Shown one piece after another: positions 1-64,000 of a stretch of 64,000 nt of DNA. The stretch lies in the NCBI GenBank assembly GCA_030425205.1, contig JAUIAP010000004.1:1-64000 (forward strand), given 5' to 3'. A program made the position numbers and the translations under genes. The stretch comes from Anaerolineae bacterium (GTDB taxonomy: Bacteria; Chloroflexota; Anaerolineae; Promineifilales; Promineifilaceae). Numbering within the stretch: position 1 is the stretch's first letter; each line of letters opens with the position of its first letter. Below the pieces are notes generated by a model, which worked only from the letters and a program-made list of their open reading frames with translations, had not been told where the DNA came from and made no database searches.

Positions 1-3000
1 GTGCAGTTTGGTTGGTAACGATTTGACCTGCACAGTGGCGACGCTGCCAGTGGGCGAGTCGGTGACAATTGCAATAAACGGCACAGTTGACCCTGCAACG
101 ACAGCGGTGTTCACGAACACAGCGTTTGCAAGCAGCCCGACCGATACAGACGGCGCGGTCAGTGATGGGGCAACGACAGAGGTGGGTGAATCGGCAGACT
201 TGGCTTTGCAGAAAGATGCAACAGACACCGTCAATGGAGGTGAAATCATCACCTACACATTGACCGTCTACAACTTGGGAGTATCTGACGCAACCAACGT
301 CGTCGTAACCGACACATTGCCAAATGAAGTGACGTTTGGCGATGGGACAGACTGTGTGGATAACAGCGGCATCGTGACATGTCAATTTGGGACGATTGTT
401 GCTGGCGGTATGGAAACACGCAGCTTCGCAGTTATAGTCGATAGTGACATAGAACCGGGCACGAGCATCGAGAATACGGCCATCGTCGGTAGTGACGTCG
501 CAGACCCGAACCCGAGCAATAATACCGATGATGCGGACACGAGCATTCTCGGCAGCGCGGATTTGAGTCTGACAAAGATAGGCCCAACAACCGCAACTGC
601 TGGTGAACTGGTGACCTACACCATCGTCGTGGACAACAACGGCGTGAGCACCGCGCAATCGGTAGACATCAAAGATGCGCTTCCCGTCGGCGTTTCGCTC
701 GTCGATGCGACGGTTGAGCGCGATAGCAGCAGTGCGCCAGCCGCATGTGGTGGTGCGATTTGTCAAGTGGGCGATATGCCGGTTGGCGAGACGGTGACGA
801 TGACAGTCGTTGGGCTGGTTGATGCGGATGTCGTTGATGGCGCCACGTTGACCAACGTGGCGACCGTTTTCAGCGATACGCCTGATGGCAACCTCGACAA
901 TAACAGTGACGATGTAGAAACAACCATCACAACGAGTGCGGATCTGGTCATCACGAAAGTCGATGTCAATGACCCTGTTGCGCCGTTGGGTGGTTTGCAA
1001 TACGAAATCGTGGTTGTGAACAATGGTCCGTCTGACGCGCAGAATGTTGTTATCACGGACACACTTGATAGCAACACGACATTTAGTGGCGCAAGCAGCG
1101 GGTGTGTTCATAGCAGTGGGGAAGTGATCTGTTCAGTTGGTACATTGCCAGTTGGAGAGCGTGCGAGCTACTTTGTGAGCGTCGTGGCAAATGACGTGCC
1201 GACTGGGACGATTTTGAGCAATACGGTTGTTGTGGATTCGACAACGAGTGACCCTGATACAAATAACAATTCTGATGATCAGGAGACGACGGTTGAACAG
1301 TTCGTTGGTGGATCGGCCGATCTCGCCATCCTCAAAACAGGCATCCCCGCCAGCGTAAACGCCGGTGAAACAGTCACCTACACGCTGACTATCACGAACG
1401 CTGGCGTGCAAGCAGCGACAAATGTTGAAGTTCTCGATCTTGCACCAGCAGGCACAGAGATCATCAGCATTAGCGCGAGCAACCCCGACTTCATCGGTGA
1501 AAGCTGCTCGTCAGGCGGTGCCTGCTATCTCGGCACCGTCTACACGACGACAACAGCGATTGTGACGGTTGTATTGCAGGTAGATGACGACTTTACAGGT
1601 AGCAGCATCATAAACAGCGCAAACGTCAGCAGTGACCAAGTTGATCCTGACCCAGCAAACAACATCGACGATGCGACGACAACAATCACGCAAGAGGCAG
1701 ACTTAAGCCTTACAAAAGCGGACTTGACTGACCCCGTGACAGCGGGTGACACCTTAATGTACGAATTGGTTGTCCGCAATGCAGGACCAAGTCTTGCAGA
1801 GAATGTCGTCATCACAGACGATTTGCCAGCCAACACAACGTTTGTAGGCGCGTCGGATGTCTGCGAGTTGAGCAGTGGGGATGTCGTCTGTAACATTGGT
1901 GATTTGGCAGCAGGTGAGATAGCGACCGTCTTCATCCAAGTCGCGGTCAGCGCAACGCTGGCAGATGGTGCGACGATAACAAACGGCGCAGAGGTTGCTA
2001 GTGACACCCCTGACAGCAACACGGGCAATAACACGGCTGAGGAAGATACAACAGTCAATCAGTCAGAGCTGAATGCAACGAACTTGCAACTGAGTAAGAC
2101 AGATACGATTGACCCCGTAACAGCGGGCGAAATAGTCACTTACACACTCGTTATCACGAACGCGGGACCTGCGCCGGCAATCAATGTACAAGTGGTGGAT
2201 TCACTGCCAAACGGGTTGACGTTCATCAGCGCGACCCCATCGCAAGGCGTTTGCAACGGCGGCGTGACCTGCGACTTGAACGATTTGGCGGTTGACGCAA
2301 CGGCTACGGTGATCGTGGTGGCACGGGTCGAGAGCGACCAAACGACCAACGTGACGAATGTCGCAACCGTTTCGGCGACCAATCCTGAGTTAGATGATAG
2401 TGACAATACAGATAGCGAAGTGACGGAAATTACTGAAGAGGCTTCACTCGGAATTGAAAAGACTGGCACAACCAACGCCATTGCGGGTGGCAGCATCAGT
2501 TACGAAATCGTGGTGACCAATAGTGGTCCATCAGATGCGCAAAACGTCACCATCACAGATACGCTGCCAAGTGAAGTATTGAACGCGCTGGCAACATCAA
2601 GTGATGCGGCGTGCAGTTTGGCTGGTAACGATTTGACCTGCACAGTGGCGACGCTTCCAGTGGGCGAGTCGGTGACAATTGCGATAAACGGCACGGTGGA
2701 CCCAGCGGTGACGGCGGCGTTTACGAACACGGCGTTTGCAAGCAGCCCGACAGATACAGATGGCGCGGTCAGTGATGGGGCAACGACAGAGGTGGCTGAA
2801 TCGGCCGATTTAGCTCTCGACAAATCGGCAACAGACACCGTCAATGGAGGTGAAATCATCACCTACACATTGACCGTCTACAACTTGGGCGTGTCTGACG
2901 CAACAAACGTTGTCGTAACCGACACATTGCCAGGTGAAGTGACATTTGATGCTGGGACAGACTGTGTGAACGACGGTGGCGTGGTGACGTGTCAATTTGG

Positions 3001-5220
3001 GACGATTGCTGCTGGTGCGACAGCGGTGCGGACATTTACGGTGCGCGTCGACAACGACGTGGAACCGGGAACAAGCATCGAAAATACGGCTATCGTCAGT
3101 AGCGACGTCGCAGACCCGAACCCAAGCAATAATACAGATGATGCGGACACGAGCATCTTGGGTAGCGCGGATTTGAGTCTGACAAAGACAGGACCAGCAA
3201 CAGCAACTGCTGGTGAACTGGTGACCTACACCATCGTCGTGGACAACAGCGGCGTGAGTACCGCGCAGTCGGTAGACATCAAAGATGCGCTACCGGTCGG
3301 CGTTTCGCTCGTCGATGCGACCGTTACCCGCGATGGCAGCACTGCGCCAGCGGCGTGCGGTGGTGCGATTTGTCAGGTGGGCGACATGCCGGTTGGCGAG
3401 ACAGTGACGATGACGGTGGTTGGGTTGGTTGACGCGGATGTGGCTGATGGCGCAACGTTGAATAACGTGGCGACAGTTTTCAGCGATACGCCTGATGAAG
3501 ACCCCAACAATAACAGTGATGAGGCGGAGACGACAATAGAAACGAGCGCAGACGTGCTGGTTACGAAGGTTGATCTGAATGACCCCGTTGCGCCATTGGG
3601 CGGGTTACTTTACGAGATTGTTGCCGTGAACAATGGCCCATCAGATGCACAAGATGTGGTAGTCATAGACACACTTGACGCAAATACGACGTTTAGCACG
3701 GCGAGCCGCGGTTGTTTGCATGATAGCGGTGTCGTGACCTGCACCATTGGTAGCTTGCCAGCAGGGGAGAGTGCGACCTTCATGATTGGCGTGATGGTTA
3801 ACGATGTGCCAACGGGTACGGTGTTGACCAATGCGGTTGTTATCAACACAACAACGGATGATCCCAATACTGGCAACAATAACGATACTGAAGAGACGAC
3901 GGTTGAACAGCCGCTTGGAGCATCGGCCGATCTCGCCATTACTAAAACCGGCACCCCTGCTAGCGTCATCGCCGGCGAACTTGTCACCTACACACTGCGC
4001 GTCACAAACGGTGGTGTGCAGACGGCGACGGGTGCGGAACTGCTCGACATTGTGCCAGCGGGTGCGACGTTTGTCAGTGCTACAGTGGATAATCCCGACG
4101 ATGCTAGCGCAGTCTGCTCGCTGGGTGGGGCATGCTATCTGGGTCGAATCAATGTCGGCACGGAGGTAGTTGCAACACTTGTGCTGCGCGTCAATGCAGA
4201 TTTTGCAGGTGATTCGCTGCAAAACACGGCCACTGTCTTTGCCGACCAAGTTGATCCAAATACCGATGACAACTTTGATGACGAGTCGACGGATGTAACA
4301 AAATCGGCCGATCTCGCCCTCAGTAAAGTTGACCTAACTGACCCAATCATTGCGGGTGAAGTGTTGCAATATCAACTCGTTGTGACAAACAATGGTTCAT
4401 CCGACGCACAAAATGTCGTTGTGACGGACACGCTCGATAGCCGCACATGGTTTGTTGGCGGCGACGCGGCATGTGTGGAAAACGCTGGCATTGTGACATG
4501 CGCAATAGACGATTTGGCGGCTGGTGCGACACGCACGTTGCTAATCGAAGTGCGCGTTCCAGATAATTTGCCAAATGGGACGACGCTGAACAATTCGGCC
4601 GCTGTGACCAGCGATACGCCTGACCCGAACCCAGCCAACAACACTGATGATGAAGAGACGACGGTTGATCAATCGACGCTTAACCCAACCGATTTGAGCA
4701 TCAGCAAAGATGACGCGATTGACCCCGTGACGGCGGGTGAAACGCTTACCTACACGCTCGTGGTCACCAACAACGGCCCTGCAACCGCCAGCAATGTGCG
4801 GGTGGTGGATGCACTGCCAAACGGCGTGTCCGTTTTGAGTGCGACGGCGCAGCAAGGGACCTGCACCTTGGGCGACATGTCATGTGAGCTGGGCGATATG
4901 GCTGTTGGCGCGACGGTGACAATTGAAATTGTCGTGGCGGTTGATGAGACACAAACGACTGACTTGCTGAATAACGCACGAGTCAGCGCGAGTAATCCAG
5001 ATAATAATCCGTCAAACAACGCAGATGATGAGGTGACGCAGGTGGTTGAATCGGCCGATCTCGCCCTCGAAAAACGCGCGCCCGCGACGGCAACGCCGGG
5101 TGGCACGCTGGCCTATCAAATCATCGTGACAAATAATGGGCCATCGGCCGTGATCGATGCAGTCGTGCGCGACGTCCTGCCCGATCAGCTACAGGGTGTG
5201 TCGGCAAGCGCGAGTCAGGG
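1..5220 (+). repeat. Tandem duplication of a 2610-bp (870-codon) seven-domain block
   Basis: Positions 1-2610 and 2611-5220 align without gaps at an offset of exactly 2610 at every point I compared: 1/2611, 191/2801, 541/3151, 1321/3931, 1721/4331 and 2101/4711. Long stretches are identical at DNA level, with scattered mostly synonymous differences. The following domains look like a third, diverged copy, where the offset has drifted by about 12 bp. It is an in-frame amplification within the giant DUF11 gene. Confidence 0.85.
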
Positions 5221-8200
5221 AAGCTGCGGCTTTGTGGCGGATGAACTTGTCTGCACATTGGGCGCACTCGCTGTTGGCGCAAGCGCGACGATTGATATTT
5301 TGGGGACGGTTTCGGCCGCTGCGAGCACAACGTTAACCAACACGGCAAGCGTTGCCAGCGCACTTGTGCCAGACCCGAATCCCAGCAACAACAGTGACAC
5401 CGTGATAACGGAACCCGATCGCCGTGCTGACTTGAGCATTGTGAAATCGGCCGATTCCACAACGACTGCGGGCGAACTGCTTGAATACACATTGACCGTT
5501 TACAACGCGGGGCCATCCGTGGCGACAAACGTGGTCGTGACCGATGTGTTGCCAGCGGAGGTGACATTTGTCGCCGCCTCTGATCTCTGTAGCGGCACGA
5601 CGACGGTCATTTGCACGGTCGGAACGCTCGGCGTACAAGAGGTTGCCACGTTGACGTTGACGGTGCGCGTTGCTGACGACTTGCCAGCGGGAACGGACAT
5701 TGAAAACGTGGCGACGGTTGGCAGCGATGTGGCTGACCCCAACCCGCTGAACAATTCAGACGATGCGGACACAGGCGTGCGCGTCGGTGCGGATCTCGCC
5801 GTTCAGAAGGAGAGCGCAGGCGAGTTTGTGGCGGGTGGCATTGTCACCTATACGCTGACCGTTCTGAACAATGGCCCCTCGACGGCGCAAAATGTGACGC
5901 TGCTCGACGTGCTGCCCGTCCACTTGACGCTGCTCGACGCGACCAGCACCAAGCCAGTTTGCTCTGGCGCGACGTGCGTGTTTGGTGAGATGGCGGCAAA
6001 TGAAGTGGTGACAGTGACGATTGTGGCGCGGGTCAATAGCAACACGAGCGCGGGAACGCCGATTCTCAACTTGGCGAACGTGACAAGTGCAACACCTGAC
6101 AGCGATCCGACGAACAACGGCGATAACGTCGTAGACACGGTGACAACATCGGCCGATCTCGCCATCGAAAAACGCCACAATGGTGATTTGGCAGCGGGTG
6201 GTCAAGTTGAATACGTGCTGACCGTTGTGAACAATGGTCCTTCAACAGCACGCAACGTCAGCGTGACCGACACGTTGCCACTAAGCGTGACCTATGTGAG
6301 CAGCACGGGCAACTGCGATTTGGCATCTGCTGCACCCGACGTCGTGACCTGCACGCTGAGTGATTTGGCGGTGGGTCAAACTGTGGAAATCGTCCTGACG
6401 GCCGATATTGCGGCGTCGCTGGCGTTTGCAGACGTGACGAACAGCGTCATCGTCGGCAGCGATACACCTGACCCGACCCCCGATAACAACGAAGATGACG
6501 ACACAGCGACGGTCATTCCAGCGGCCGACCTGTGGCTGATCAAATCAAATGTCACACCAAGCGTCATCGCGGGCGAGGTGGCGACCTACACCTTCACCGT
6601 CGTCAACGATGGCCCATCAGATGCAACTGGCGTCGAGGTGACGGACGTGTTGCCGCCGGGTATGAGCTACCACAGCGACAATGCGCCGCAAGGCTGTACG
6701 GCAGTCGCCAATGTGGTGACCTGTTTGGTGGGGTCAATTTCGGCCGATACTCAACAAACGTTTGAGGTTGCGTTCAATGTCGCCAGCGATTTGGTTGAGG
6801 GAACAACCCTCGTCAACGATGCGACGGTGAGCAGCGAGACGCAAGATCCCACCCCATCAAACAACGATGATGAGGCGGCGATTGGCGTGTTGGCACGCGC
6901 GGATCTCGGCATCATCAAACTGGTCGAGCCTGTCGATGTGGTGGCGGGTGAACCGATTACCTACACCATCGTCCTAACAAACGCGGGCCCTTCTGTGGCG
7001 CGGGGTGTGGACGTGAAAGACTTCTTGCCGACAGGTGTGACATTGCGCCATGCAACGACACATGACGGCGTGCCGTGTCTGACTGCCGCACTGTGTCAGT
7101 TAGGCGATGTTGCCACAAATGAGGTGGTGACGATGACGCTGGTTGGGGACGTTTCGGCCGATATTTTGGCTGGCACTATCCTGACCAATACGGCGCGCGT
7201 CTTTAGCGACTCACAAGATCCAAACCCCGACAATGACGAGGCCGAGGCGAGCAGCACGGTCAGCGAATTGGCGCAATTGGTGATCGAAAAGAGCGATTGG
7301 ATCGACCCCGTGGGCGCAGGTGGAGAGGTGATCTACCAGATCGCCGTCACGAACAGTGGGCCATCGGACGCGCATGACGTGGTCGTGGTGGACGTGTTGC
7401 CGAGCGAATTGACCTATCTCAACAGCAGTGCTGACTGTGTTGAAGCGCCTGTTGGCACGCTAACCTGCGATCTAGGTACTGTAGCAGATGGCGCGACGGT
7501 GACATTTAACGTGACAGCACGCAGCGCAGTGACGGTCGCAGATGGCACTGTTGTGACAAATCGTGTTTCGTTGACCAGCAGCACACCGCTGACACCTGAC
7601 AGCGAAACGGAAGATGATGAAGAGACGACGTTGATTCAGACAACGGGCGGCCCTGCCGATGTCGGGATTGTGAAGTGCGTCGGTGCGGCGCCGTGCGAAT
7701 CGGCCGATCCGACACCGCTGATTCATGGCGAAGAGGTCGTCTTTACGCTCGTCGTTACCAACTATGGCCCGGCTGTGGCAACCAACGTGGAAGTGCTGGA
7801 TGCGCTGCCCAATGGCTTGACGCTAATCAGCGCGGATACGCCAAGCGGTGCCTGTAGCGGCGCGACGTGCGTCATTCCACAGATGGCGGTTGACGAGACG
7901 GCGACGATCACGCTGATTGCGCGAGTCGATGCCAGCGTTGCCCACGGCGCACTGTTGACCAACCTTGCAACCGTCTACGCCGACCAGCCCGACAATAACC
8001 CCGACAACGACCGCGACGATGCCGTTGTGATTGTGAACGGTGTGGCCGACTTGGCTGTGACAAAATCGGCCGATTCTGACGCAATCGCGGGTGAACAACT
8101 CGCCTACACGGTGGTCATTACCAATTACGGTACATCGACCGCTAAAAACGTCGTTATCACGGACACGTTGCCAGCAGACGTAACGCTTGTGGCGGCGGCT

Positions 8201-10516: not shown

Positions 10517-10538
10517 GGAGATTTCGGCCGAAATCTCC
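10517..10538. repeat. Perfect 22-bp palindrome centred on TCGGCCGA
   Basis: The arms GGAGATTTCGG / CCGAAATCTCC are perfect inverted complements without a loop. It lies between the DUF11 gene and the PD40 operon. It could be a protein-binding site or simply the longest extended copy of the iterated palindrome. Confidence 0.6.
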
Positions 10539-51534: not shown

Positions 51535-51883
51535 CACAACGATGAATGTGACGGTAGAGGCGGTAGGCGAGCTAGTGCTGATTGGATTGGCAGGCGTATT
51601 GGACATTTCGGCCGAAAATGTGCTGTTGCAGGCGTACCGCGCGGGCGCGGATTTTCGGCCGAAAATAATTCGTCTCGATTTTGCTGACGTCACCTTCATC
51701 AACAGCATGGGATTGGCATTAATTGTCGAACTGCTCATGCAAGCGCGCCACGATGCCATCAGCTTGCAGGCGTCTGGCCTCAGTGATCATGCGCGCGAGC
51801 TTTTCGACATCACGCGCCTATCCGATTATGTGACGCTGCACGAAAGGAGCGTCACAAACTTGAATGAACGTGACTCTTTTTGA
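51527..51883 (+). CDS. STAS-domain anti-sigma-factor antagonist, first of two
   Basis: 118 aa from the ATG at 51527, which overlaps the stop of the phosphatase/kinase gene; a later ATG at 51542 is possible. The single STAS domain has LAGVLDISAENVLL and RLDFADVTFINSMGLALIVEL (in part). The Ser of NSMG aligns with the phosphorylated Ser of SpoIIAA (DSSG). It is probably the protein that the neighbouring kinase domain phosphorylates and the PP2C domain dephosphorylates. Two TCGGCCGA sites lie only 47 bp apart here (51608 and 51655), read in two different frames (SAE and RPK). Confidence 0.9.
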   Translation: MDNTTMNVTVEAVGELVLIGLAGVLDISAENVLLQAYRAGADFRPKIIRLDFADVTFINSMGLALIVELLMQARHDAISLQASGLSDHARELFDITRLSDYVTLHERSVTNLNERDSF

Positions 51884-52314: not shown

Positions 52315-54435
52315 TTATCCTGCTTCCACCACTGCACGCAATTGCGCGGGTGGCGTGAAACGTTCGCCATAGCGTTCAGCTAACGCTTGTGCGCGTGCGA
52401 TGAACTTATCGACCCCATATGAGTTGATAAATTGCAGCGTGCCGCCGTTGAATGGTGCGTATCCCCAGCCGAAGATGCTTCCTAAATTGGCATCGGCCGA
52501 ACTCCGCAACACCCCTTCCTCCATACAGCGCACCGTCTCAAGCGACTGAATGAACAAGATACGGTCGATCATCTCTTGTTGATCTAGTTGCGGCTGACCG
52601 TCCATGAAGATGTTTGTCAGCTCAGGCCAAAGCTTTTTGCCATTCTCGCCATATTCGTAGAAACCAGCACCGCCAGCCCGACCAGATCGGCCGAGATCAA
52701 GCATCTTGTCCAGCACAACATCGCCGGGATGATATTGATACGTCTTACCCTCCGCTTCAAAGTCGGCAATCGTTTGGTCACGCACATGCGCCGATAAGCT
52801 CAATGTCACCTCATCGTGCAACGCCAATGGGCCAACGGGCATTCCCGCCTTAATCCCCGCCATCTCAATCGCTTGCGGATGGTTGCCTTCTCCCAGCAAC
52901 GCCATCCCCTCGTAGATCCACGTCCCAAACACCCGCGATGTGTAAAAACCACGACTGTCGTTAACGACGATTGGCACTTTGCGGATCGCCAGCACATAGT
53001 CGAACGCCTTTGCCAGCGTCTCGTCGTCCGTCTTTTCACCGACGATGATCTCGACCAACTGCATCTTGTGGACGGGTGAAAAGAAGTGGAGACCAATAAA
53101 TTTCTCTGGACGTTGACTCGCCTCCGCGAGCCCCGTAATTGGCAGCGTGGAAGTGTTAGATGCAAAGACACCGCTAGCATCCATCGCGTCCTCTGCCAGC
53201 TTTGTCACCTTCGCTTTTAGCGCACGATTCTCAAAAACGGCTTCGATAATCAGATCACAGCCGTCCAACGCGCTGTAATCGGCAGTGGCGTCGACGTTTG
53301 CCAATATGCCATCCGCCTGTTCCTGTGACAGCTTGCCACGTTGAACCTGCTTGCTAAGCAAGGCGGCGATCTTCTCTTTGCCCTTGTCTGCCCCTGCCTG
53401 ATCCGCGTCCGTCATCACGACATCCATACCCGCCATCGCTGAAACGTAGGCGATGCCGTGTCCCATCATGCCAGCACCAAGTACACCGACCTTTTTTGTT
53501 ATTTGTGGGGGGATGTTTTTCGGCCGATTTGCCCCCTTCTTGATCTGATTCAACTGCGTCCAAAACGCGTGAATCATATTTTTGCTCTCATTACTTGTGC
53601 CGAGCTTGGCAAAGTAGCGCGACTCGATACGGCTGGCGGTCTCGAAATCGACCTGTGCGCCCTCGACCAACGCCGACAAGATCGCCTCTGGCGCGGGATA
53701 GTTGCCCTTCGTCTCCTTGCGAATCATCGCGGGCGCAATCGCCAACATTTGGGCAATTGCGGGATGATTGGGCCCACCGCCCGGAATTTTGTATCGTTTG
53801 ACCGCATCCCATGGCGCTTTTGCATCGGGATTGGCGTGAATCCATTCCCGCGCCTGACGCAGCAAATCTCCCTCATCCGTCGCCAGCGCGTGGATCATGC
53901 CCGCCGCCAGTGTCTGCTTGGGCGTATACTTTTTGTTTTGCGTCAACCATTCGAGCGCAGTTTGCAGCCCCGCCAAACGACCCGCACGCACTACCCCACC
54001 CCCACCGGGCAGAAGTCCCAATCCCACTTCTGGGAAGCCAAATTTGATGCGGTCATTGTCGATGGCGATGCGATAGTGGCAGCCGAGTGCTAGCTCAAAC
54101 CCACCGCCGAGAGCGGTCCCGTTTAACGCCGCGACGACTGGTTTATCCAGCTTTTCCAAACGGCGGATGTATGACTTCAACATTTCCGCGCCGTCGAAAA
54201 ACGCTCGTGGATCATCCCCCTCAAAAGAGCTGTCGATGTCCGCACCCGCGATCCAAATCTTCGACTTGCCCGAGATGAGAATCACACCCGTGACCGATTC
54301 ATCCCCCTCTAGTCGCTCCAAAATTGGCACGTATGCGTCATAAAAATCGCTGTTCAACACATTTGCCGAGCGTCCCGGCATATCAATTGTCAGGGTCACG
54401 ATCCCCTGTTCGTCTTGTTCGTAGTTAATGGCCAT
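52315..54435 (-). CDS. fadB: Bifunctional enoyl-CoA hydratase / 3-hydroxyacyl-CoA dehydrogenase (FadB/FadJ-like)
   Basis: 706 aa from the ATG at 54435 (MAINYEQDEQGIVTLTIDMPG), the usual length. It carries out the second and third steps of fatty-acid beta-oxidation. N-terminal crotonase domain (about 1-200) with ALNGTALGGGFELALGCHYR and FPEVGLGLLPGGGG. NAD-binding domain from about residue 313 with GVLGAGMMGHGIAY. Then the C-terminal 3HCDH domains (IGLHFFSPVHKMQLVE, VVNDSRGFYTSR). The frame is open to 54477, but those 14 residues are encoded by the adjacent inverted repeat and are not homologous sequence. It follows the thiolase gene in the same direction with an 80-bp gap; together they form a classic two-gene beta-oxidation operon. 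Confidence 0.95.
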   Translation of the reverse strand: MAINYEQDEQGIVTLTIDMPGRSANVLNSDFYDAYVPILERLEGDESVTGVILISGKSKIWIAGADIDSSFEGDDPRAFFDGAEMLKSYIRRLEKLDKPVVAALNGTALGGGFELALGCHYRIAIDNDRIKFGFPEVGLGLLPGGGGVVRAGRLAGLQTALEWLTQNKKYTPKQTLAAGMIHALATDEGDLLRQAREWIHANPDAKAPWDAVKRYKIPGGGPNHPAIAQMLAIAPAMIRKETKGNYPAPEAILSALVEGAQVDFETASRIESRYFAKLGTSNESKNMIHAFWTQLNQIKKGANRPKNIPPQITKKVGVLGAGMMGHGIAYVSAMAGMDVVMTDADQAGADKGKEKIAALLSKQVQRGKLSQEQADGILANVDATADYSALDGCDLIIEAVFENRALKAKVTKLAEDAMDASGVFASNTSTLPITGLAEASQRPEKFIGLHFFSPVHKMQLVEIIVGEKTDDETLAKAFDYVLAIRKVPIVVNDSRGFYTSRVFGTWIYEGMALLGEGNHPQAIEMAGIKAGMPVGPLALHDEVTLSLSAHVRDQTIADFEAEGKTYQYHPGDVVLDKMLDLGRSGRAGGAGFYEYGENGKKLWPELTNIFMDGQPQLDQQEMIDRILFIQSLETVRCMEEGVLRSSADANLGSIFGWGYAPFNGGTLQFINSYGVDKFIARAQALAERYGERFTPPAQLRAVVEAG

Positions 54436-54439
54436 GTTT

Positions 54440-54513: not shown

Positions 54514-54514
54514 C

Positions 54515-55729
<1,215 letters not shown>

Positions 55730-56048
55730 GAGATTCCTTTTTGGGATTTGCGGTCTTCACGGAATGGTTTGTAATCCGTAACTTACCTGCTGATAAGTAC
55801 ATGTTTTGTCAAAATTATGGCGCACGTGTTGCAGTAAGTCAATTTAGGCATTTTCCCCCTTCACTAGCGAAATTGGATAGACACAGCCCAATTATGCGAT
55901 GATGTATTTGCAATGCGGGTGCGTGAAGATGGATTGTTTATTTCGGCCGAAAAGACGACATTGGACGGTTCAAAAAGGGTTGGTGCAGCTTTTAGAAAAG
56001 AATGGATACCTGCCTTCGCAGGTATGACAGTTCTTACTTTACGATGAA
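55730..56048. other. Intergenic region: thiolase promoter, palindrome, REP-like repeat
   Basis: 319 bp between the GH31 gene end and the thiolase start, both on the minus strand. It holds the thiolase promoter, one TCGGCCGA (55944) and the REP-like repeat adjoining the GH31 stop. No gene is supported. Confidence 0.65.
55814..55842 (-). promoter_or_regulatory. Sigma-70-like promoter of the fadA-fadB operon
   Basis: On the minus strand TTGACT (55842-55837) and CATAAT (55819-55814) are separated by exactly 17 bp, each one mismatch from consensus. The predicted start lies about 80 nt before the thiolase ATG. It is the best conventional promoter I found in the window. Confidence 0.7.
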
Positions 56049-56053: not shown

Positions 56054-58514
56054 GCAGATCATCCAAATTTATGGGCAGATCCACCCCAGCGCGCACAAAG
56101 ACGGGAATCTTGATGGTTGACACGTCGTAATGGATGACCTGACCACCGTTATACTGCTCGCCCGTCCAAAGGTCACGCCACTCACCGGTGGGCAGATAGA
56201 GCGGCCATTTGCTGACCCCTTCTGCAACGACTGGCGCAACCAGCAACGCAGAGCCAAACATATATTGATAGGGAAATTGGCGGCATTGGCGGTCGGTGGG
56301 GAAGGCCAGTGACAACGCACGCATCATTGGAATACCTATGAGGCTTGACTGCAACGCTTCATACTCGATGTAAGGTCGGAGCTTCAAGCGGACATCGTTC
56401 AAAAAGCGGAATGTCGGAATCACCGTTTCATCCCCTGTGCGCTCTTGGATATTCCATGGGGTGCGGTCGTTGGAGGGTTGACGATGATGGTTGTATTCGG
56501 AGTGATACTGCATGATGGGACAGAAGGCCGCCATTGCGCTGGCACGCAGGTACAGTTCGGCCGATGGAATATCCCCGCTGAACCCTGCAAAGTCCCATCC
56601 CCAAAACGAGACACCAGAGATTCCCGCATTTAACCCAGCTAGCACGGAGTGACGGAACGCCTCCCACGTCGAGTTCTCATCCCCTGCCCAGTGGCATGGG
56701 AACGCCTGCGCCCCCGTGAATCCCGCACGACTGAAGGTGATCGCGTCAGGTTTAATCGTGCGCGCATAGTTGAAATACGCGCCAGCATATAGATTGGGAT
56801 ACTCATTCCAAACTTCATCGCCGCCACGTCCATCGGCAAACTGTAAATCGCGCCCCCAAATGTGTTCGCCGCCATCCGTCTTGAAGCCGTCAATGCCAAT
56901 CTCGCGCAGCAGATATTCCCGCTTCTGCATCCACCAATCGACGCCCTGTGGATGGGTAAAATCCATCAGCAATCCGTCGTGAAACCAAAACGGCCGAATT
57001 TGATACGGTTCGCCGTCCGCCTGCTGAACACAGTACCCTTTTTCGAGCATGTGCGCCTTATCTTGGTCCAATTGTGCGTTTCCGTCCTCGTTGACCTTGA
57101 GGATCGGGATTTGCCACAGCAAAACGCGCATCCCCTGCTCATGCAACTCGTCAACCATCCCCTTTGGATCGGGCCACAGTCCGTCAGGCGGGAACTCAAA
57201 ATCGGCGTAACGGAATGACGCATCGCCAGACTTGGGCTGATATTGGGTATCATTCCAAATATAAAACGTGTTCTCGTCGCTCCATGCTTCCAGTACGATG
57301 ACAGAGGCCGGAATGTCGTGCCGTTTGTGTTGGCGCATGATCTCTTCGACACGTGCTTGAGAGTTCCACTCGTTGCCGCTGATCCAGAGTCCAAACGCCC
57401 AATCAGGAGGCAGCGTGGGCAGCCCCGTCAGCGTCGTTAGCCTTGCAACGATGTCGAGCAAATTTGTGTCGCTGCCCAGCAGAAGATCGAGCGTGATCTG
57501 CTTTTCTGCACCGAGTTCCGTCGTGAGCGTCCAGCGGTTTGGATCATCATGTGCGAGGTCAAACAGGGAATGCCGCAGCGTTTGCACGAGGAGCCCATAT
57601 CCCATTGAGGATACGAGTAGCGGCATCGGCATGTAGGTGCGGAGGCCGTGATTCTTGTACTGCTCGTAAACGCGCACGTCGAGCCGTTGCCCGCGCTGAT
57701 CGAGCGCATTAAACCGCTCGCCGAAGCCATAAAATGCCTCATCTTCTGGTGCGGCAAATGCGAAGATGACCGCTTCGACAAAGTTATCATCGCCAATGAT
57801 TAACTTGGGCGGCTGCATCCCTGTCACGATCAGTTTGTCTTGATGAAAAAGGTTCAGGCCAAACTGGTTTGCGTCTATCTGTATCGTCGTCGCGCCAAAC
57901 GAGAATCGCGTTTCATTGACCTTTTTGAGCGCACTGTTCTCGATGTCTGGACAGTTGCCATGACCCGCTGTGACCTGCAAGTGACCGTTGGTAGCGAGCG
58001 AGAGACGCAGATAGCCTGCATGGTCGGCCGTGTCATTTTGCAGTGCAAGGATAAGCGCATTTGCGCCGAGATACGTGGCCGCTAGCGTGTCGAGTGCAAT
58101 GGTTTGGCGCACGGTGTAGGTGTAAGTAGGGCTGTTGAGTGGGCTGGTGGGGGTTTCGGCCGAAAACTGATAGCAAACCACCGTCCCAGCCGCGAATGCA
58201 GGTAGCGTGACCTGCCACTCGTCCACACCCACAATCAAGCCAGCCCGTGCGGCCGCCTCGCTTAAATGCCCATCTTCGGTAAAGGCGACTTCTTCCTCAA
58301 TGCTTTCTGTCAGTGCTACTTGCTTACTGTTTACTTGATCTGGAAAGCGTTGATCCCAATAGCTGACGAGCATATTTTTTGCTGCCCCAATTGGCCGCGT
58401 CAAGGCGCGCAGTTCTACCACATCTTGCGGGTGGGGATGTCTGGGAACACGTTCATCTGTCGTGCTTTCATAGGGGTGGCGGTCGCCAAATGGACGGTGG
58501 ATCAGTTCACTCAT
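56049..58514 (-). CDS. Glycoside hydrolase family 31 alpha-glucosidase
   Basis: 821 aa, no signal peptide, so cytoplasmic. GH31 enzymes cut terminal alpha-linked glucose or xylose. After an N-terminal beta-sandwich (FYGFGERFNALDQRGQ) comes the catalytic barrel. PPDWAFGLWISGNEW opens it. The nucleophile Asp is in IDGFKTDGGEHIWG and the acid/base Asp in FPCHWAGDENSTW. A C-terminal beta domain has YQYMFGSALLVAPVV and WRDLWTG. Substrate (maltose, isomaltose, xylosides) cannot be fixed by sight. Its ATG overlaps the stop of the GH15 gene by 8 bp, and it is the last gene of the sugar operon. It probably acts on oligosaccharides imported by the ABC transporter. Confidence 0.94.
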   Translation of the reverse strand: MSELIHRPFGDRHPYESTTDERVPRHPHPQDVVELRALTRPIGAAKNMLVSYWDQRFPDQVNSKQVALTESIEEEVAFTEDGHLSEAAARAGLIVGVDEWQVTLPAFAAGTVVCYQFSAETPTSPLNSPTYTYTVRQTIALDTLAATYLGANALILALQNDTADHAGYLRLSLATNGHLQVTAGHGNCPDIENSALKKVNETRFSFGATTIQIDANQFGLNLFHQDKLIVTGMQPPKLIIGDDNFVEAVIFAFAAPEDEAFYGFGERFNALDQRGQRLDVRVYEQYKNHGLRTYMPMPLLVSSMGYGLLVQTLRHSLFDLAHDDPNRWTLTTELGAEKQITLDLLLGSDTNLLDIVARLTTLTGLPTLPPDWAFGLWISGNEWNSQARVEEIMRQHKRHDIPASVIVLEAWSDENTFYIWNDTQYQPKSGDASFRYADFEFPPDGLWPDPKGMVDELHEQGMRVLLWQIPILKVNEDGNAQLDQDKAHMLEKGYCVQQADGEPYQIRPFWFHDGLLMDFTHPQGVDWWMQKREYLLREIGIDGFKTDGGEHIWGRDLQFADGRGGDEVWNEYPNLYAGAYFNYARTIKPDAITFSRAGFTGAQAFPCHWAGDENSTWEAFRHSVLAGLNAGISGVSFWGWDFAGFSGDIPSAELYLRASAMAAFCPIMQYHSEYNHHRQPSNDRTPWNIQERTGDETVIPTFRFLNDVRLKLRPYIEYEALQSSLIGIPMMRALSLAFPTDRQCRQFPYQYMFGSALLVAPVVAEGVSKWPLYLPTGEWRDLWTGEQYNGGQVIHYDVSTIKIPVFVRAGVDLPINLDDLP

Positions 58515-59661
58515 AACGTTTCAATTCCTCGCACAAAATCAAGTACATCGCGTGTGACCACGTGAGCGGTTTCGCCACGGATCCCCAGCGGTCACGCCAT
58601 TCGGCAATGCGGTCGGGCGCGAGCAGATGATCGGACACCTGCTCTGGCAGATAACCGTTCTCATCGGCTTGTGCTTCAACCCAGCTCTTTAATTTTTTGG
58701 CCTCTTCAATTCGGCCGATTTTCGCATAATGCCAGCCCAGCCATGCTGCCAGCAAGACCCATTCGCCACCGCCATAATAGGTGTCGCCCAGATAGCGATA
58801 GACACCGCCGTTGGGTCGATGCAGCATTGCTTCTAGCTGGTCGAGGGTCGCTTGCAGGTGGGGATTATCGGCCGAAAACACCGCATAAGGTGTTGCAAGT
58901 CCGATCAGGCTCGCCTCCGCACCTTGCCGCATTTGCTCATCCGTTGTCGCATCATGGTAAACCGTTTGTGGCGTTTGCAAAATGCTTTGAGGTGGCTGTT
59001 TGAGCGCGAATGATTTAGAAAAGCGGCCGTCGCAGACCCCTTCGGTTAACATCAGTTCCCGAATCGCGGTCGTCACACCCGCCGCATCTTGCGCAAGATC
59101 GGGCAGCAGTTGCGCCGTTGCTTGCAGACCCGCATGAATCGCCGCCAGCGAATAGTTGTGCAGATATTGCGAAAGCTCTTCCCAACAGTCGTAGTTAGGC
59201 TGTTGCCAAAGATGGCTGAGATAACGATAGACGACGCGCACCTCGTCCGCGATTTCGTCGAGAATCGCCCCATCCTGCGCCAACTCAACATACTCACCTA
59301 ACGCCCACAACCAAGTCCCATAGCCGTCAAGTTGAAAATCCCACCACTGGTTTTCATCCTCAAGGCCATCGGCCGTATAGCGCGTGTGCAGGTAATCGTC
59401 GGGGCCAAGTCGCTTGCCCGCCGTGATGTTCGCGATGGCGCGGTCGGCCTTCCATGCGAAGCGGCGAACCGTTTGCGCTGCCCAGATGAAGTAGTCGCGC
59501 GCCTGCTGGAATCGCCCCACGCGACATTGCGCATAGGCGATATAGCTGCTATCGCGGAACCAGCTAAAGCGGTAGGAGGGAAATTCGGCCGATGCAATGA
59601 TTGCGCCGCTTGCTGTCTGGCTGTCTATGAGCAGTTGGATGCTCTGGTCGTATAAAGTCAT
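58507..59661 (-). CDS. Glycoside hydrolase family 15 glucoamylase-like protein
   Basis: 384 aa, a single (alpha/alpha)6-barrel-like domain with no export signal. GH15 signatures: RFSWFRDSSYIAYAQCRVG near the N-terminus, WWDFQLDGYGTWLWAL in the middle, NYDCWEELSQYLHNYSLAA carrying the probable general acid Glu, and GGGEWVLLAAWLGWHYA near the end for the second acidic residue. Shorter than bacterial GH15 proteins with an N-terminal beta-sandwich, which is absent here. Expected to release glucose from alpha-glucans or act on trehalose-like or isomaltose-like sugars. Cotranscribed with the following GH31 gene by overlap. No ribosome binding site is visible. Confidence 0.87.
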   Translation of the reverse strand: MTLYDQSIQLLIDSQTASGAIIASAEFPSYRFSWFRDSSYIAYAQCRVGRFQQARDYFIWAAQTVRRFAWKADRAIANITAGKRLGPDDYLHTRYTADGLEDENQWWDFQLDGYGTWLWALGEYVELAQDGAILDEIADEVRVVYRYLSHLWQQPNYDCWEELSQYLHNYSLAAIHAGLQATAQLLPDLAQDAAGVTTAIRELMLTEGVCDGRFSKSFALKQPPQSILQTPQTVYHDATTDEQMRQGAEASLIGLATPYAVFSADNPHLQATLDQLEAMLHRPNGGVYRYLGDTYYGGGEWVLLAAWLGWHYAKIGRIEEAKKLKSWVEAQADENGYLPEQVSDHLLAPDRIAEWRDRWGSVAKPLTWSHAMYLILCEELKRYE

Positions 59662-59699
59662 GTTTATCTGTTTATGGGAAACGTGCTGGCAGTGAAGGC

Positions 59700-59720: not shown

Positions 59721-59733
59721 ACCTAATTCAATT

Positions 59734-61056
59734 CTATGGCAGCAACTCTTCAAGCTGTGCTTTCGCTTCTGTCAACGCTTCTTCAGCCGTCAGCTCGCCG
59801 AGCTTCACTTGGTCGATCAACTGATTGACCGCATCTTGCATCTCGTTTTGTCGCTCGATGACGGGTGGGACGATGGCATAGTTCAGCGAATCAAAGACGG
59901 CTTGCCGGTTGTTGGGCGGCGTTTGCGAGAGGTAGCCATCGACATATGCGGGGTTATCGAGGGTCGGCAATTCCCAACCCGATTCGATCCGAATATCGGC
60001 CATCTCTGGACTGGATGTGAAGAACTTGATCCATTCCCATGTGGCGGCTTGCTGGGCAGAATCGGCCGAAATCGCAACCCCGTTTGAGAAGAAATGGGTC
60101 GCCTGTGTCTCCATGCCCGGCTCTACCTGAATGTCCCACTCAAATGGGGCATCTTCAAATGCGGCAAACATCCAAATACCCGTTACGGTCATGGCGAGTT
60201 GTTGCGATGTGAACATGTCGCCGTCCGATATGCCAGCCATGTCAATATCGCTCGGCATGACGCCATCCGTCTCAACTAAATCGACCATCGTTTGCAGCGT
60301 TTCAACACAGGCAGGGGAGTCAATCGTGACCGCGCTCATGTCTTCGCTAAAGAATGAACAGCCATTTTGTGCTGCCTTTTTGTAGAACTCCCAGAATTGA
60401 ATGGCCGAATGGAGCCCCCACACGCCAGCGTCGGCATCGGTCATTTGCTCTGCCGCCACAACCGCATCATCCCACGTCCAATCGGCGGCGGGGTAATCGA
60501 CACCCGCCGCATCGAACATGTCTTTGTTGTAGAAGAGGACGACAGTTGAGAATGTCGCTGGCAACGCTTGTTGGCTACCGTTGTAGTTAAATGCTTCGAG
60601 TGAGCGCGGATAGTAGAGGTCGCCATTGTACTCATTATCGGCCGATGCCAACGCACTCAGGTCTGCCAACGCACCCTTTGCCGCAAAGGTGACAAAGTTT
60701 TCGTAATTTAACTCAAACGCATCGGGTGCTTCACCACCAGCGATCAACGCTTGTAGTTTGGTGAAATAGTCATCGAACGGAGCCGTTTCAACCGCGACCT
60801 TGATGCCCGGATTTTTTGCTTCAAAAGCAGCAATCATCTGATCGAGTTCTTCAAGATGGTCAGGAGCGGCCGAGAAGGTCAAATAGGTGATGGTGACGGG
60901 TTCATCTGTCGTCGTGTCATCCACTTCAACGGCCGTCGTTGGACTTTCCACCTCCGTGGTGGGGTCAGTCGTTTCACTCGTTGAACAGCCGATAAGCAAC
61001 AACATGGCTGCCAGCAGCAGCATAATCTGGAAAAGAGCGGTGCGTTTTTGGTACAT
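59734..61056 (-). CDS. ABC transporter sugar-binding lipoprotein (family 1)
   Basis: 440 aa. A lipoprotein signal with lipobox LLIGC (Cys24) is followed by a Thr/Glu-rich linker (STSETTDPTTEVESPTT). The mature part is a family 1 solute-binding protein: ITYLTFSAAPDHLEELDQMI, AFEAKNPGIKVAVETAPFDD, NKDMFDAAGVDYPAADWTWD, GISDGDMFTSQQLAMTVTGI. It captures an oligosaccharide outside the membrane and delivers it to the two permeases encoded just upstream. AGGAGA lies 6 nt before the ATG. The neighbouring GH15 and GH31 genes point to an alpha-glucoside such as maltose or isomaltose (inference). No ABC ATPase gene is in the window, so a shared MsmK/UgpC-type ATPase elsewhere is likely. Confidence 0.93.
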   Translation of the reverse strand: MYQKRTALFQIMLLLAAMLLLIGCSTSETTDPTTEVESPTTAVEVDDTTTDEPVTITYLTFSAAPDHLEELDQMIAAFEAKNPGIKVAVETAPFDDYFTKLQALIAGGEAPDAFELNYENFVTFAAKGALADLSALASADNEYNGDLYYPRSLEAFNYNGSQQALPATFSTVVLFYNKDMFDAAGVDYPAADWTWDDAVVAAEQMTDADAGVWGLHSAIQFWEFYKKAAQNGCSFFSEDMSAVTIDSPACVETLQTMVDLVETDGVMPSDIDMAGISDGDMFTSQQLAMTVTGIWMFAAFEDAPFEWDIQVEPGMETQATHFFSNGVAISADSAQQAATWEWIKFFTSSPEMADIRIESGWELPTLDNPAYVDGYLSQTPPNNRQAVFDSLNYAIVPPVIERQNEMQDAVNQLIDQVKLGELTAEEALTEAKAQLEELLP

Positions 61057-61118
61057 TTTGTTCTCCTAAATATGTTTTTGATGCAAGACGCGCAATGCCC
61101 ATCTTGTCATCGCGGCGT

Positions 61119-62829: not shown

Positions 62830-62891
62830 AAAAGGTTTAGCTCCGTCGTACTTAGTTCAGTAAGTGAATAAAGAATTGCAAAAAATTTTGC

Positions 62892-64000
62892 CTACTTCAG
62901 CATAGGCGACTTGAATAACTCGCTTAACACGAGGCTTGCCGCGCCACGCGCCCACGTTTCATCGCCTACAGGTTCGATGACGATTTTTAGATCGTCCGCC
63001 AGCCCGTTAAAGACGTGGCGTTTAATCGCTGCGTGCATCGGTTCTAATCGCCACTCGCCAGCCTGCACGCCTTCGCCGCCAATAATGACCAGTTCAGGAT
63101 TGAGCAGGTTGATGAGAATGGAGATGCCGATGCCGAGCCAGCGACCTGCATCGGCCAGCAAGCCTTGTGAAACGCGGTCACCTGCGTTGGCGGCGGCGAT
63201 GATAGCGTCGAGGGTGAGGGGATTTTCGGCCGAAAACAACGTCTCCTCCCCCCGCGCAATGATCTCCTGTGCAAAGTGCAGAATCGCGTTGTCAGACGCC
63301 AATTGCTCCAACGTGACGGGCGGCTCACCATCCTGCATGGTGATGTGTCCAAACTCACCCGCGCCACCAAATGCACCGCGATAGAACTGCTGATTGAGCA
63401 CGATCCCAGCACCCACACCTCGCCCCACCGTGACGACAACAAAGTGCGAGAAATCACGCCCGTAGCCAAACCATTTCTCGACAACGGTCAGCGTATTTAC
63501 ATCATTTTCGACATAAACAGGCAGGTCGAAGTGCGTCGAAATCGGTGTGGCGATGTCCACGTCGCGCCAGTTAAAGTAAGGTGAGTAGTGACATATCCCC
63601 TGCCCGCCGTCGATGACGCCAGCCAGTCCAATGCCAATACCGACAACCCGCGCTCGCTCAATATCTGATGCGACAAGCGAATCTTCAATCGCTGCAATAA
63701 GGGCGGCAAAGACGTGTTGAGGTGGCGGGGAAGGCATCGCCACATTCAGTGGATAGATTTGGTGGTAGATTACTTTGGCATCTAAATTAGTGACGGCAAC
63801 GGTGATTGCCTGCTCCATCAGCTTGAGTCCGACGACAAATCCCGCCCGATGGTTCAAGCGCAACAAAACAGGCCGCCGCCCACCGCTCGACTCCCCTTCC
63901 CCCGTCTCTTGAATTGTATCGTCAGCGATCAGGCTGCTGGTGATGTTGGAGATCGTCCCCGCGCTGAGGTTAGAGCGTTGGATCAACTCTGTGCGCGAGA
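62892..64000 (-). CDS. ROK-family transcriptional regulator (5' end beyond the window)
   Basis: About 369 codons are visible. The frame continues through SRTELIQRSNLS to the right edge, so the N-terminal part of the MarR-type winged helix is cut off. The rest of the HTH (RSNLSAGTISNITSSLI) and the wing (GGRRPVLLRLN) are present. The ROK sugar-kinase-like domain follows: GIGIGLAGVID, VYVENDVNTLTVVEKWFGYG, VTVGRGVGAGIVLNQQFYRG and GAGEFGHITM. The zinc-binding Cys cluster of most ROK proteins is not present: the region after GEFGHITM has no Cys. ROK regulators of the NagC/XylR type respond to sugars. As first gene of the visible sugar operon it probably controls that operon. Confidence 0.9.
   Translation of the reverse strand, partial: SRTELIQRSNLSAGTISNITSSLIADDTIQETGEGESSGGRRPVLLRLNHRAGFVVGLKLMEQAITVAVTNLDAKVIYHQIYPLNVAMPSPPPQHVFAALIAAIEDSLVASDIERARVVGIGIGLAGVIDGGQGICHYSPYFNWRDVDIATPISTHFDLPVYVENDVNTLTVVEKWFGYGRDFSHFVVVTVGRGVGAGIVLNQQFYRGAFGGAGEFGHITMQDGEPPVTLEQLASDNAILHFAQEIIARGEETLFSAENPLTLDAIIAAANAGDRVSQGLLADAGRWLGIGISILINLLNPELVIIGGEGVQAGEWRLEPMHAAIKRHVFNGLADDLKIVIEPVGDETWARGAASLVLSELFKSPMLK

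What the first reader, a model, noticed from the sequence alone, without database searches (positions are those of the whole stretch)
1313..63233. HIP1-like highly iterated palindrome TCGGCCGA (about 88 copies in 64 kb)
Seen: about 88 exact TCGGCCGA octamers, one per 730 bp, against one or two expected from base composition. Nearly all are flanked by A/T, often symmetrically (TTTTCGGCCGAAAA). They occur in genes on both strands, in all three codon phases (SAD/SAE, IRP/FRP, FGR) and in intergenic DNA, so selection or spread acts on DNA, not protein. Related CGGCCG sites without the flanking T/A are much rarer. Known: cyanobacteria carry HIP1 (GCGATCGC), whose role is debated. Inference: this lineage has an independent iterated palindrome, perhaps maintained by a methyltransferase, repair bias or nucleoid protein. 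I know of no description in this phylum.
Basis: partly seen in the sequence, partly recalled or inferred. Interest (0 to 1): 0.88.

Follow-up and report, generated by a model that had tools for sequence, protein, structure and literature searches.

The report
Family-wide palindromic DNA word with dialects
Most sampled members of one family of Anaerolineae bacteria carry thousands of copies of a short palindromic DNA word with a shared core and lineage-specific ends, strong enough to bias the proteins they encode and also present in some phages, and it is likely read by a still unknown DNA-handling protein.

Summary
TCGGCCGA occurs 88 times in the window (1.6 expected) and 9,414 times in the 7.79-Mb genome. 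It beats a protein- and codon-preserving shuffle 17-fold, in all three codon phases. Its core, CGGCCG, exceeds all codon shuffles in 37 of 43 testable genomes (of 52) of the same family, but the end bases differ by lineage: T..A here and in G008; A..T in most sampled genera; unconstrained in others, even in the same genus. Among four close congeners with the A..T dialect, octamers are intact in 136 of 144 comparisons, against 730 of 1,939 for neighbouring 8-mers. The word biases proteins dialect by dialect (SAD/SAE here, TAV there), and some phage contigs carry it densely. Two near-complete carriers lack both enzyme families that methylate DNA cytosine, unlike the rule reported for cyanobacterial HIP sites. 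Most likely it is a maintained recognition site for a symmetric DNA-processing protein, Chi-like in effect; that protein is inferred, not found. It works like a HIP, in a new variant.

The parts
1313..1320 (.). TCGGCCGA site
2801..2808 (.). TCGGCCGA site
3923..3930 (.). TCGGCCGA site
4304..4311 (.). TCGGCCGA site
5051..5058 (.). TCGGCCGA site
5447..5454 (.). TCGGCCGA site
6149..6156 (.). TCGGCCGA site
6740..6747 (.). TCGGCCGA site
7154..7161 (.). TCGGCCGA site
7700..7707 (.). TCGGCCGA site
8066..8073 (.). TCGGCCGA site
8399..8406 (.). TCGGCCGA site
9398..9405 (.). TCGGCCGA site
9494..9501 (.). TCGGCCGA site
10524..10531 (.). TCGGCCGA site
11071..11078 (.). TCGGCCGA site
11812..11819 (.). TCGGCCGA site
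12519..12526 (.). TCGGCCGA site
12693..12700 (.). TCGGCCGA site
13053..13060 (.). TCGGCCGA site
13242..13249 (.). TCGGCCGA site
13413..13420 (.). TCGGCCGA site
13743..13750 (.). TCGGCCGA site
13824..13831 (.). TCGGCCGA site
14507..14514 (.). TCGGCCGA site
14987..14994 (.). TCGGCCGA site
15277..15284 (.). TCGGCCGA site
15560..15567 (.). TCGGCCGA site
15869..15876 (.). TCGGCCGA site
16390..16397 (.). TCGGCCGA site
17176..17183 (.). TCGGCCGA site
17600..17607 (.). TCGGCCGA site
17942..17949 (.). TCGGCCGA site
18867..18874 (.). TCGGCCGA site
18914..18921 (.). TCGGCCGA site
19433..19440 (.). TCGGCCGA site
21777..21784 (.). TCGGCCGA site
22134..22141 (.). TCGGCCGA site
22278..22285 (.). TCGGCCGA site
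23412..23419 (.). TCGGCCGA site
23490..23497 (.). TCGGCCGA site
23604..23611 (.). TCGGCCGA site
24261..24268 (.). TCGGCCGA site
25377..25384 (.). TCGGCCGA site
25484..25491 (.). TCGGCCGA site
25920..25927 (.). TCGGCCGA site
26175..26182 (.). TCGGCCGA site
26580..26587 (.). TCGGCCGA site
27618..27625 (.). TCGGCCGA site
28714..28721 (.). TCGGCCGA site
30647..30654 (.). TCGGCCGA site
32086..32093 (.). TCGGCCGA site
32507..32514 (.). TCGGCCGA site
34028..34035 (.). TCGGCCGA site
34227..34234 (.). TCGGCCGA site
35418..35425 (.). TCGGCCGA site
35771..35778 (.). TCGGCCGA site
36934..36941 (.). TCGGCCGA site
38155..38162 (.). TCGGCCGA site
40425..40432 (.). TCGGCCGA site
41257..41264 (.). TCGGCCGA site
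41559..41566 (.). TCGGCCGA site
41703..41710 (.). TCGGCCGA site
41826..41833 (.). TCGGCCGA site
43419..43426 (.). TCGGCCGA site
44792..44799 (.). TCGGCCGA site
45085..45092 (.). TCGGCCGA site
49149..49156 (.). TCGGCCGA site
49333..49340 (.). TCGGCCGA site
49919..49926 (.). TCGGCCGA site
50287..50294 (.). TCGGCCGA site
51128..51135 (.). TCGGCCGA site
51268..51275 (.). TCGGCCGA site
51608..51615 (.). TCGGCCGA site
51655..51662 (.). TCGGCCGA site
52493..52500 (.). TCGGCCGA site
52687..52694 (.). TCGGCCGA site
53520..53527 (.). TCGGCCGA site
55093..55100 (.). TCGGCCGA site
55943..55950 (.). TCGGCCGA site
56557..56564 (.). TCGGCCGA site
58156..58163 (.). TCGGCCGA site
58711..58718 (.). TCGGCCGA site
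58868..58875 (.). TCGGCCGA site
59585..59592 (.). TCGGCCGA site
60062..60069 (.). TCGGCCGA site
60638..60645 (.). TCGGCCGA site
63226..63233 (.). TCGGCCGA site

Best explanation
TCGGCCGA is this genome's dialect of a palindromic word (core CGGCCG) shared by most sampled members of its family, and it is likely the recognition site of a symmetric DNA-processing protein that would treat word-bearing DNA as self, as Chi sites do in other bacteria. Shown: the shared core, lineage-specific ends, enrichment at DNA level in every codon phase and between genes, near-perfect retention of octamers among four close congeners of one A..T-dialect genus, dialect-specific effects on proteins, and carriage by phage contigs. 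Inferred: that one two-fold symmetric protein reads the core plus one base on each side, that changes in that protein make the dialects, and that DNA poor in the word fares worse inside the cell (for instance degraded more or recombined less well), which would be why chromosomes, plasmid-like elements and phages keep it. Not shown: the protein, its activity, or that T..A octamers themselves are retained between close relatives (the nearest relatives searched, G001 and G008, are at 73% and 70% rpoB nucleotide identity).
For: Genome-wide 9,414 copies. Octamer 577 in coding DNA vs 34.3 in synonymous shuffles, all phases. Core above all codon shuffles in 37 of 43 f1 genomes with enough coding DNA, of 52 in the family. 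Dialects: T..A in G000 and G008, A..T in most sampled genera, unconstrained in G001 and g6. Retention 136 of 144 octamer comparisons vs 730 of 1,939 same-phase shifted 8-mers in four close congeners of G044; 19 of 29 vs 56 of 400 in a fifth, more distant one. Across rpoB of 23 genomes core sites are kept more than other G/C-only hexamers (0.35-0.55 vs 0.12-0.36 at 60-85% identity). Spacing in 400 kb of G000 is more even than random (CV 0.82; null 95% 0.92-1.08). Tripeptide excess follows dialect. Phage contig L381/L397 with terminase, portal and head genes has 76 coding octamers vs 5.5 in codon shuffles. The palindrome implies a symmetric reader (inference).
Against: No reading protein was found. 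Elhai argues that a protein could hardly change its binding specificity as easily as HIPs change (PMC4390886); the same objection applies to these dialects. Chi sites of named bacteria are not palindromic (recalled). Even spacing is clear in G000 C31 only; the window (CV 0.92; null 0.81-1.20) and G008 (0.94; 0.93-1.09) lie inside the null band. Phage contigs were found through a cluster of three octamers, so their density is biased upward, and of 13 word-rich viral loci compared with 2.4 Mb of fetched f1 and related DNA only the contig of L375/L400 shows protein kinship. Some f1 genomes (G010, G028, G012, G021) show no core excess in their samples. The octamer comparisons share sites and are not independent. 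A directed repair process could give the same retention.
Confidence: 0.4

Rival explanations
1. The word is the site of a nucleoid or chromosome-organising protein that needs a site every few hundred bases; selection keeps spacing even.
For: Density, even spacing in G000 C31, palindromic symmetry, presence in all codon phases and between genes.
Against: Some phage and plasmid-like contigs carry the word as densely as or more densely than the sampled chromosomes, which a chromosome-folding role does not ask for. No candidate protein found.
Confidence: 0.2
2. A DNA-level repair or conversion process, without any function of the site, turns near-miss sequences into the octamer and restores decayed copies.
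For: Would explain carriage by any replicating DNA in the cell, protein effects and retention. Single-base decayed octamers are rare: 1 of 144 comparisons.
Against: A T-to-C correcting system would be expected to remove TGGCCG, the C-to-T near-miss of the core, but it stands at 1.36 to 1.82 times a masked third-order expectation in all five samples; other kinds of conversion are not tested by this. Dialect-specific ends need a sequence-specific agent anyway.
Confidence: 0.2
3. It is a DNA uptake sequence: transformation takes up word-bearing DNA, as in Neisseriaceae and Pasteurellaceae, and the dialects are mating barriers.
For: Dialects with a shared core, density and family scale match the DUS dialects of Neisseriaceae (PMC3630211, part 1 of 8 read). 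ComEC domain in 47 of 52 f1 genomes.
Against: The ComEC domain is also present in the genomes without core excess (G010, G028, G012, G021). The published DUS words are not palindromic. Phages, which inject their DNA, carry the word.
Confidence: 0.1
4. As Elhai proposed for cyanobacterial HIPs, a cytosine methyltransferase of matching specificity plus methyl-directed mismatch repair creates and keeps the sites.
For: PMC4390886 reports one or more methyltransferases predicted to recognise some portion of the word in every HIP-rich cyanobacterium, while noting some HIP1-rich genomes without the CGATCG enzyme (parts 1, 2, 4, 5 of 8 read). G000 has four PF00145 genes.
Against: 28 of 52 f1 genomes have no PF00145 match, among them strong carriers. 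G006 (94% complete) has no PF01555 match either, and G044 (97%) only two weak ones, best E 4.6e-4; matches at that E score about 22 bits elsewhere, under the 26.7-bit cut-off. In G000 one of the four PF00145 genes is a HaeII-type system and one is broken.
Confidence: 0.07
5. Artefact of codon or amino-acid usage.
For: Phase 0 (Ser-Ala-Asp/Glu) holds 386 of 577 coding sites in G000.
Against: All three phases exceed synonymous shuffles 14- to 37-fold; sites outside ORFs at 875/Mb.
Confidence: 0.01

Closest known systems
HIP1 (GCGATCGC) and alternate HIPs of cyanobacteria
   Same: GC-rich palindrome at about 1,000-2,000 per Mb; a core with replaceable end bases (HIP1 versus TCGATCGA; PMC4390886).
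   Different: Other sequence and phylum; core shared by most sampled members of a family with several dialects; no gene of either cytosine-methyltransferase family in two carriers; retention among congeners and phage carriage measured here.
DNA uptake sequences and their dialects (Neisseriaceae, Pasteurellaceae)
   Same: Thousands of copies, a common core with lineage-specific outer bases, family-wide (PMC3630211).
   Different: This word is palindromic and is carried by phages; no uptake evidence; the ComEC domain does not track it.
Chi recombination hotspots
   Same: Short over-represented words read by a DNA-processing enzyme, marking self DNA (recalled).
   Different: Known Chi words are asymmetric (recalled); no RecBCD/AddAB link was tested.
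Restriction-modification recognition sites
   Same: Short palindromes read by sequence-specific enzymes.
   Different: Such sites can be avoided: three RGCGCY-type words are depleted in the genome that carries a HaeII-like system, while this word is enriched.

Membership tests
HIP class (Elhai 2015, cyanobacteria) | Palindromic octamer far above expectation, hundreds to thousands per Mb | tested here: met
   1,209 per Mb genome-wide; O/E 28.7 in 464 kb
HIP class (Elhai 2015, cyanobacteria) | Acts on DNA: several codon phases and intergenic DNA | tested here: met
HIP class (Elhai 2015, cyanobacteria) | One-off forms deviate mostly at outer bases | tested here: met
   T>A 66 and T>G 105 against 4-32 for each inner change; the outer change T>C, 10, is low
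HIP class (Elhai 2015, cyanobacteria) | Genome holds a methyltransferase that could modify the word | tested here: not met
   Not in G006 and G044 (G044 has two weak PF01555 matches); undecided for G000, whose four PF00145 genes have no assigned CGGCCG specificity
HIP class (Elhai 2015, cyanobacteria) | Cyanobacterial host | tested here: not met
   G008 of the same family is identical over 4,001 b to a record titled Anaerolineae bacterium
DNA uptake sequence | Dialects sharing a core across a family | tested here: met
DNA uptake sequence | Non-palindromic word | tested here: not met
   the word equals its reverse complement (sequence)
DNA uptake sequence | Raises DNA uptake by competent cells | not testable with these tools
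   bench assay needed
Chi site | Asymmetric word with strand bias | tested here: not met
   palindromic word, so no orientation exists (sequence)
Chi site | Stops or alters a RecBCD/AddAB-type enzyme | not testable with these tools
   no enzyme identified or searched for
Restriction site of a resident R-M system | Avoided in the genome | tested here: not met
   enriched, not avoided

The most novel reading that the evidence does not exclude
A methylation-independent DNA identity code: each lineage of the family writes the core CGGCCG with its own end bases every few hundred bases, a cognate protein reads it to tell own DNA from foreign DNA, proteins bend to accommodate it, and phages forge it to pass as self.
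Probability: 0.25. Interest if true: 0.93.

Novelty: new variant of a known kind. Interest (0 to 1): 0.82.

Why it matters
The role of HIP1 in cyanobacteria is still debated, with methyltransferases as the best circumstantial lead in print that I read (PMC4390886). Here is a separate case in another phylum that allows tests HIP1 does not easily allow: dialect differences even inside one genus, members without the word, carriers without either cytosine-methyltransferase family, and phages that carry the word. A word strong enough to multiply Ser-Ala-Asp/Glu or Thr-Ala-Val tripeptides also means that protein comparisons in this family are biased by a DNA-level force. If hosts are confirmed, the dialects could serve as a host tag for phages and plasmids in metagenomes.

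Tried and rejected
Methyltransferase link: four PF00145 genes in G000 and a cluster of similar ones in G001, G037 and G046 (68-76% identity) looked promising until the family-wide search found none in many strong carriers. The regular expression missed several of these genes; one search replaced it.

A T-to-C correcting, Vsr-like system: the near-miss spectrum does not show the expected loss of TGGCCG; no Vsr search was made. The ComEC domain does not separate carriers from non-carriers.

L168 (G008) was the useful hit; four other dense ones that I looked at (L167, L198, L222, L244) are ~20-bp tandem arrays; the other 114 were only counted, and the densest of them were mostly GC-rich. Viral scan with a stricter T..A pattern: 0 hits; the plain T..A pattern gave 6, of which only L393 was tested, 7 coding octamers against 0.3.

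rpoB tree: its count of 7 dialect changes is not used, because G031, G020 and G039 were labelled 'none' from small samples; one search shows a weak core excess in G031 and G020, and G039 had too little DNA. The same labels excluded seven genomes from the conservation counts. Literature: searches of the held open-access library listed (in the rows shown) no description of such a word in Chloroflexota; a 2018 HIP1 paper that I know by recall is not held.
Full report
Observation. The window holds 88 exact TCGGCCGA (shuffles give 1.63, largest 5; third-order Markov 3.1). The whole genome, 7,787,621 b in 108 contigs, 96% complete with 7.7% contamination, holds 9,414 copies against 27 of the reversed word. 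In a 464-kb sample (the window plus 400 kb of contig C31) the octamer occurs 619 times; 97% of the bases next to it are A or T, and the two sides vary independently. It lies in ORFs (577) and outside (42), at 1,387 and 875 per Mb. Re-dealing synonymous codons over the same proteins leaves 34.3 of 577 coding copies, and each codon phase is enriched alone. The force therefore acts on DNA.

Family and dialects. In 98 genomes including the window's own, the T..A octamer is at high density only in G000 (9,414) and G008 (7,668 in 5.1 Mb); next come G037 (2,070), G046 (1,900), G043 (1,889) and G001 (1,326). The bare core CGGCCG stands at roughly 1,200-5,100 per Mb in most members of the same family (f1, 52 genomes). 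Raw density alone does not decide (GC-rich G028 has 1,390 per Mb without excess), and the tool's control word GCCGGC is itself avoided in some genomes, so I tested against codon shuffles: the core exceeds every shuffle (10 or 40 per genome) in 37 of 43 f1 genomes. Not exceeding: G042, G010, G028, G012, G021, and G029, which ties on 3.7 kb. Dropped for too little coding DNA: G050, G051, G039; not sampled: G030, G033, G043, G046, G047, G048. Of four genomes outside the family two exceed weakly (G053 1.7-fold, G086 1.6-fold) and two do not (G064, G091). The bases next to the core differ by lineage: T..A in G000 and G008; A..T in G002, G003 (5 sites), G007, G009, G011, G013, G014, G016, G017, G018, G022, G025, G027, G032, G034, G036, G040, G044 and G049; probably G..C in G015 (8 sites only); unconstrained in G001 (same genus as G000), G037, G006 and G026; weak and unconstrained in genus g4 (core ratio 1.4-2.5). 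Four of the 40 samples were masked (G004, G005, G019, G052). G008 is 100% identical over 4,001 b to a contig titled 'Anaerolineae bacterium isolate ACE_NR_CHLO5', which places the family in the Anaerolineae (Chloroflexota); its formal name was not established.

Sites are kept. In a 20-kb stretch of G044 (A..T dialect), the 47 octamers were compared with four congeners at 85-88% identity: 32 of 32, 40 of 43, 28 of 31 and 36 of 38 are intact (136 of 144), against 183/440, 243/586, 148/415 and 156/498 for same-phase 8-mers shifted by 12-30 bases (730 of 1,939); windows with gaps were left out, and the four comparisons share sites. In a fifth congener at 78% identity (G040) 19 of 29 are intact against 56 of 400; in another genus (G025, G036) 19 of 34 against 47 of 458. 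The eight losses among the four congeners fall at five sites; only one is a single-base change. Eight CGGCCG sites of G044 without A..T ends are kept at 17 of 25 in the four congeners, not far above other G/C-only hexamers (1,419 of 2,532). So the octamer, more than the hexamer, is the maintained unit in that genus. In rpoB of 23 genomes (30 aligned, seven left out as word-poor), core sites are conserved at 0.35-0.55 against 0.12-0.36 for other G/C-only hexamers at 60-85% identity; at 85-90% the gap is small (0.60 against 0.53, 40 sites) and above 90% it is 0.94 against 0.48 on 17 sites. Where the protein permits the core in rpoB, 14 of 18 positions carry it in G001 and 15 of 20 in G006; but GC-rich G028, without excess, has 10 of 17 and G000 only 4 of 18. 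Part of the rpoB conservation may be repeated gain at the same permissive codons: P(site in b) is 0.50 when a has it and 0.31 when not. Of the six rpoB positions where G000 or G008 has a T..A octamer, G001 has the core at four, with T..A ends at one.

Cost to proteins. In G000, Ser-Ala-Asp and Ser-Ala-Glu occur 195 and 239 times against 75 and 78 expected from dipeptides; in G008 101 and 256 against 58 and 61; in the A..T genus g22 they are at expectation (5 and 4) while Thr-Ala-Val, which ACGGCCGT encodes in phase 0, occurs 80 times against 18.7; in unconstrained G001 and G037 the SAD/SAE excess is slight, 1.2- to 1.6-fold. The protein bias follows the dialect.

Spacing. In 400 kb of G000 the gaps are more even than random (CV 0.82; null 95% range 0.92-1.08), with 33 gaps under 100 b against 65 expected; the window and G008 lie inside the null band for CV, though G008 too has fewer short gaps (66 against 90). 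The null ignores codon structure.

Mobile DNA. Scanning IMG/VR for three clustered A..T octamers gave 14 and 17 rows. In the first scan 10 of 14 rows are local clusters with 3-7 octamers, most in GC-rich DNA; the other four (L374, L375, L381, L386) carry 2.5-3.7 octamers per kb throughout, against about 2.4 per kb in G044; the second scan added further word-rich segments. I chose 11 word-rich groups for a codon shuffle: 9 of 9 of A..T type exceed all 20 shuffles, as does T..A in L393 (7 against 0.3) and the core in L405 (28 against 5.3). L381 encodes a terminase, portal, major head and head-morphogenesis protein and L407 a major head protein, so these are phages; L375 and L386 have lysis, FtsK-like or partition genes and may be plasmid-like. 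Seeds were chosen for clusters, so density is biased upward. The contig of L375/L400 shares proteins with pieces of G008 and G000; for the other loci tested no host is shown.

Methyltransferases. Elhai reports, for every HIP-rich cyanobacterium, one or more methyltransferases predicted to recognise some portion of the word, and proposes methyl-directed mismatch repair as the source (PMC4390886; parts 1, 2, 4 and 5 of 8 read). In f1, 28 of 52 genomes have no m5C-type (PF00145) match. G006 and G044, both strong carriers (core 93 vs 24.0 and 60 vs 23.6 in codon shuffles), also lack a convincing m4C/m6A-type PF01555 gene: G006 has no match, G044 two weak ones with best E 4.6e-4, a level that scores about 22 bits in other genomes, under the 26.7-bit cut-off. 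Missing contigs or masked stretches could hide a gene in either, at 94% and 97% completeness. In G000 one of four PF00145 genes stands beside a HaeII-type nuclease (PF09554, E 1.2e-110), and the RGCGCY words (recalled HaeII specificity) AGCGCC, AGCGCT and GGCGCC are depleted: that resident R-M system goes with avoidance, not enrichment. Whether another of the four reads CGGCCG is not known.

Mechanism. What is shown is a palindromic word with a fixed core, changing ends, site-by-site upkeep in one genus, an effect on proteins and carriage by phages. What is inferred is a symmetric reader whose action favours DNA that bears the word. I commit to a Chi-like self-DNA recognition site because the word is kept in phages and chromosomes alike; a nucleoid protein, functionless directed repair and DNA uptake remain rivals. 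ComEC is present in 47 of 52 genomes with and without the word, so this competence gene does not decide.

Known or new. Frye et al. (PMC3630211; part 1 of 8 read) describe dialects of uptake sequences with a shared core, the nearest parallel to the dialects; an earlier paper on cyanobacterial octamers (PMC3497702; passages read) remarks, citing unpublished work, that very few bacterial genomes hold octamers as frequent as HIP1. A 2022 Synechococcus paper (PMC9239245; passages read) links HIP1 to site-specific recombination. The searches listed under Tried and rejected showed no report for Chloroflexota. It works like a HIP; I do not file it as a member of the cyanobacterial HIP class, because host and methyltransferase features are not met, and call it a new variant of that kind.

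Noticed in passing
L006 (G000 contig C31, about 96820-100713): A C5-methyltransferase beside a HaeII-family nuclease (PF09554), in a genome in which AGCGCC, AGCGCT and GGCGCC are strongly depleted; CCGCGG, CTGCAG and GTCGAC are depleted too and may mark further R-M systems.
   Followed up: partly
L007 (G000 contig C44): A C5-methyltransferase gene interrupted by a stop codon.
   Followed up: no
window 8-10378: A giant ORF of 3,456 aa with 27 DUF11 stretches; a second giant ORF of 3,577 aa at 18195-28928 matches only a laminin-G-like and a bacterial Ig-like domain.
   Followed up: no
L167, L198, L222, L244: TCGGCCGA in tandem arrays with mostly about 20-bp spacing in other genomes (for example 20 copies in Ectobacillus antri, L167); not the iterated word, perhaps operator arrays.
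   Followed up: no
G015 (g15): CGGCCG 13,814 copies against 51 of GCCGGC; ends look like G..C, a possible fourth dialect, on 8 sites only.
   Followed up: partly
G042 (g5): Its 17-kb sample has no core excess although the whole genome has 19,439 CGGCCG; perhaps a foreign contig or island.
   Followed up: no
window 37440-40352: Protein of 970 aa with a beta-lactamase-family serine-hydrolase domain and BTRD1 repeats (polyglycine hydrolase-like).
   Followed up: no
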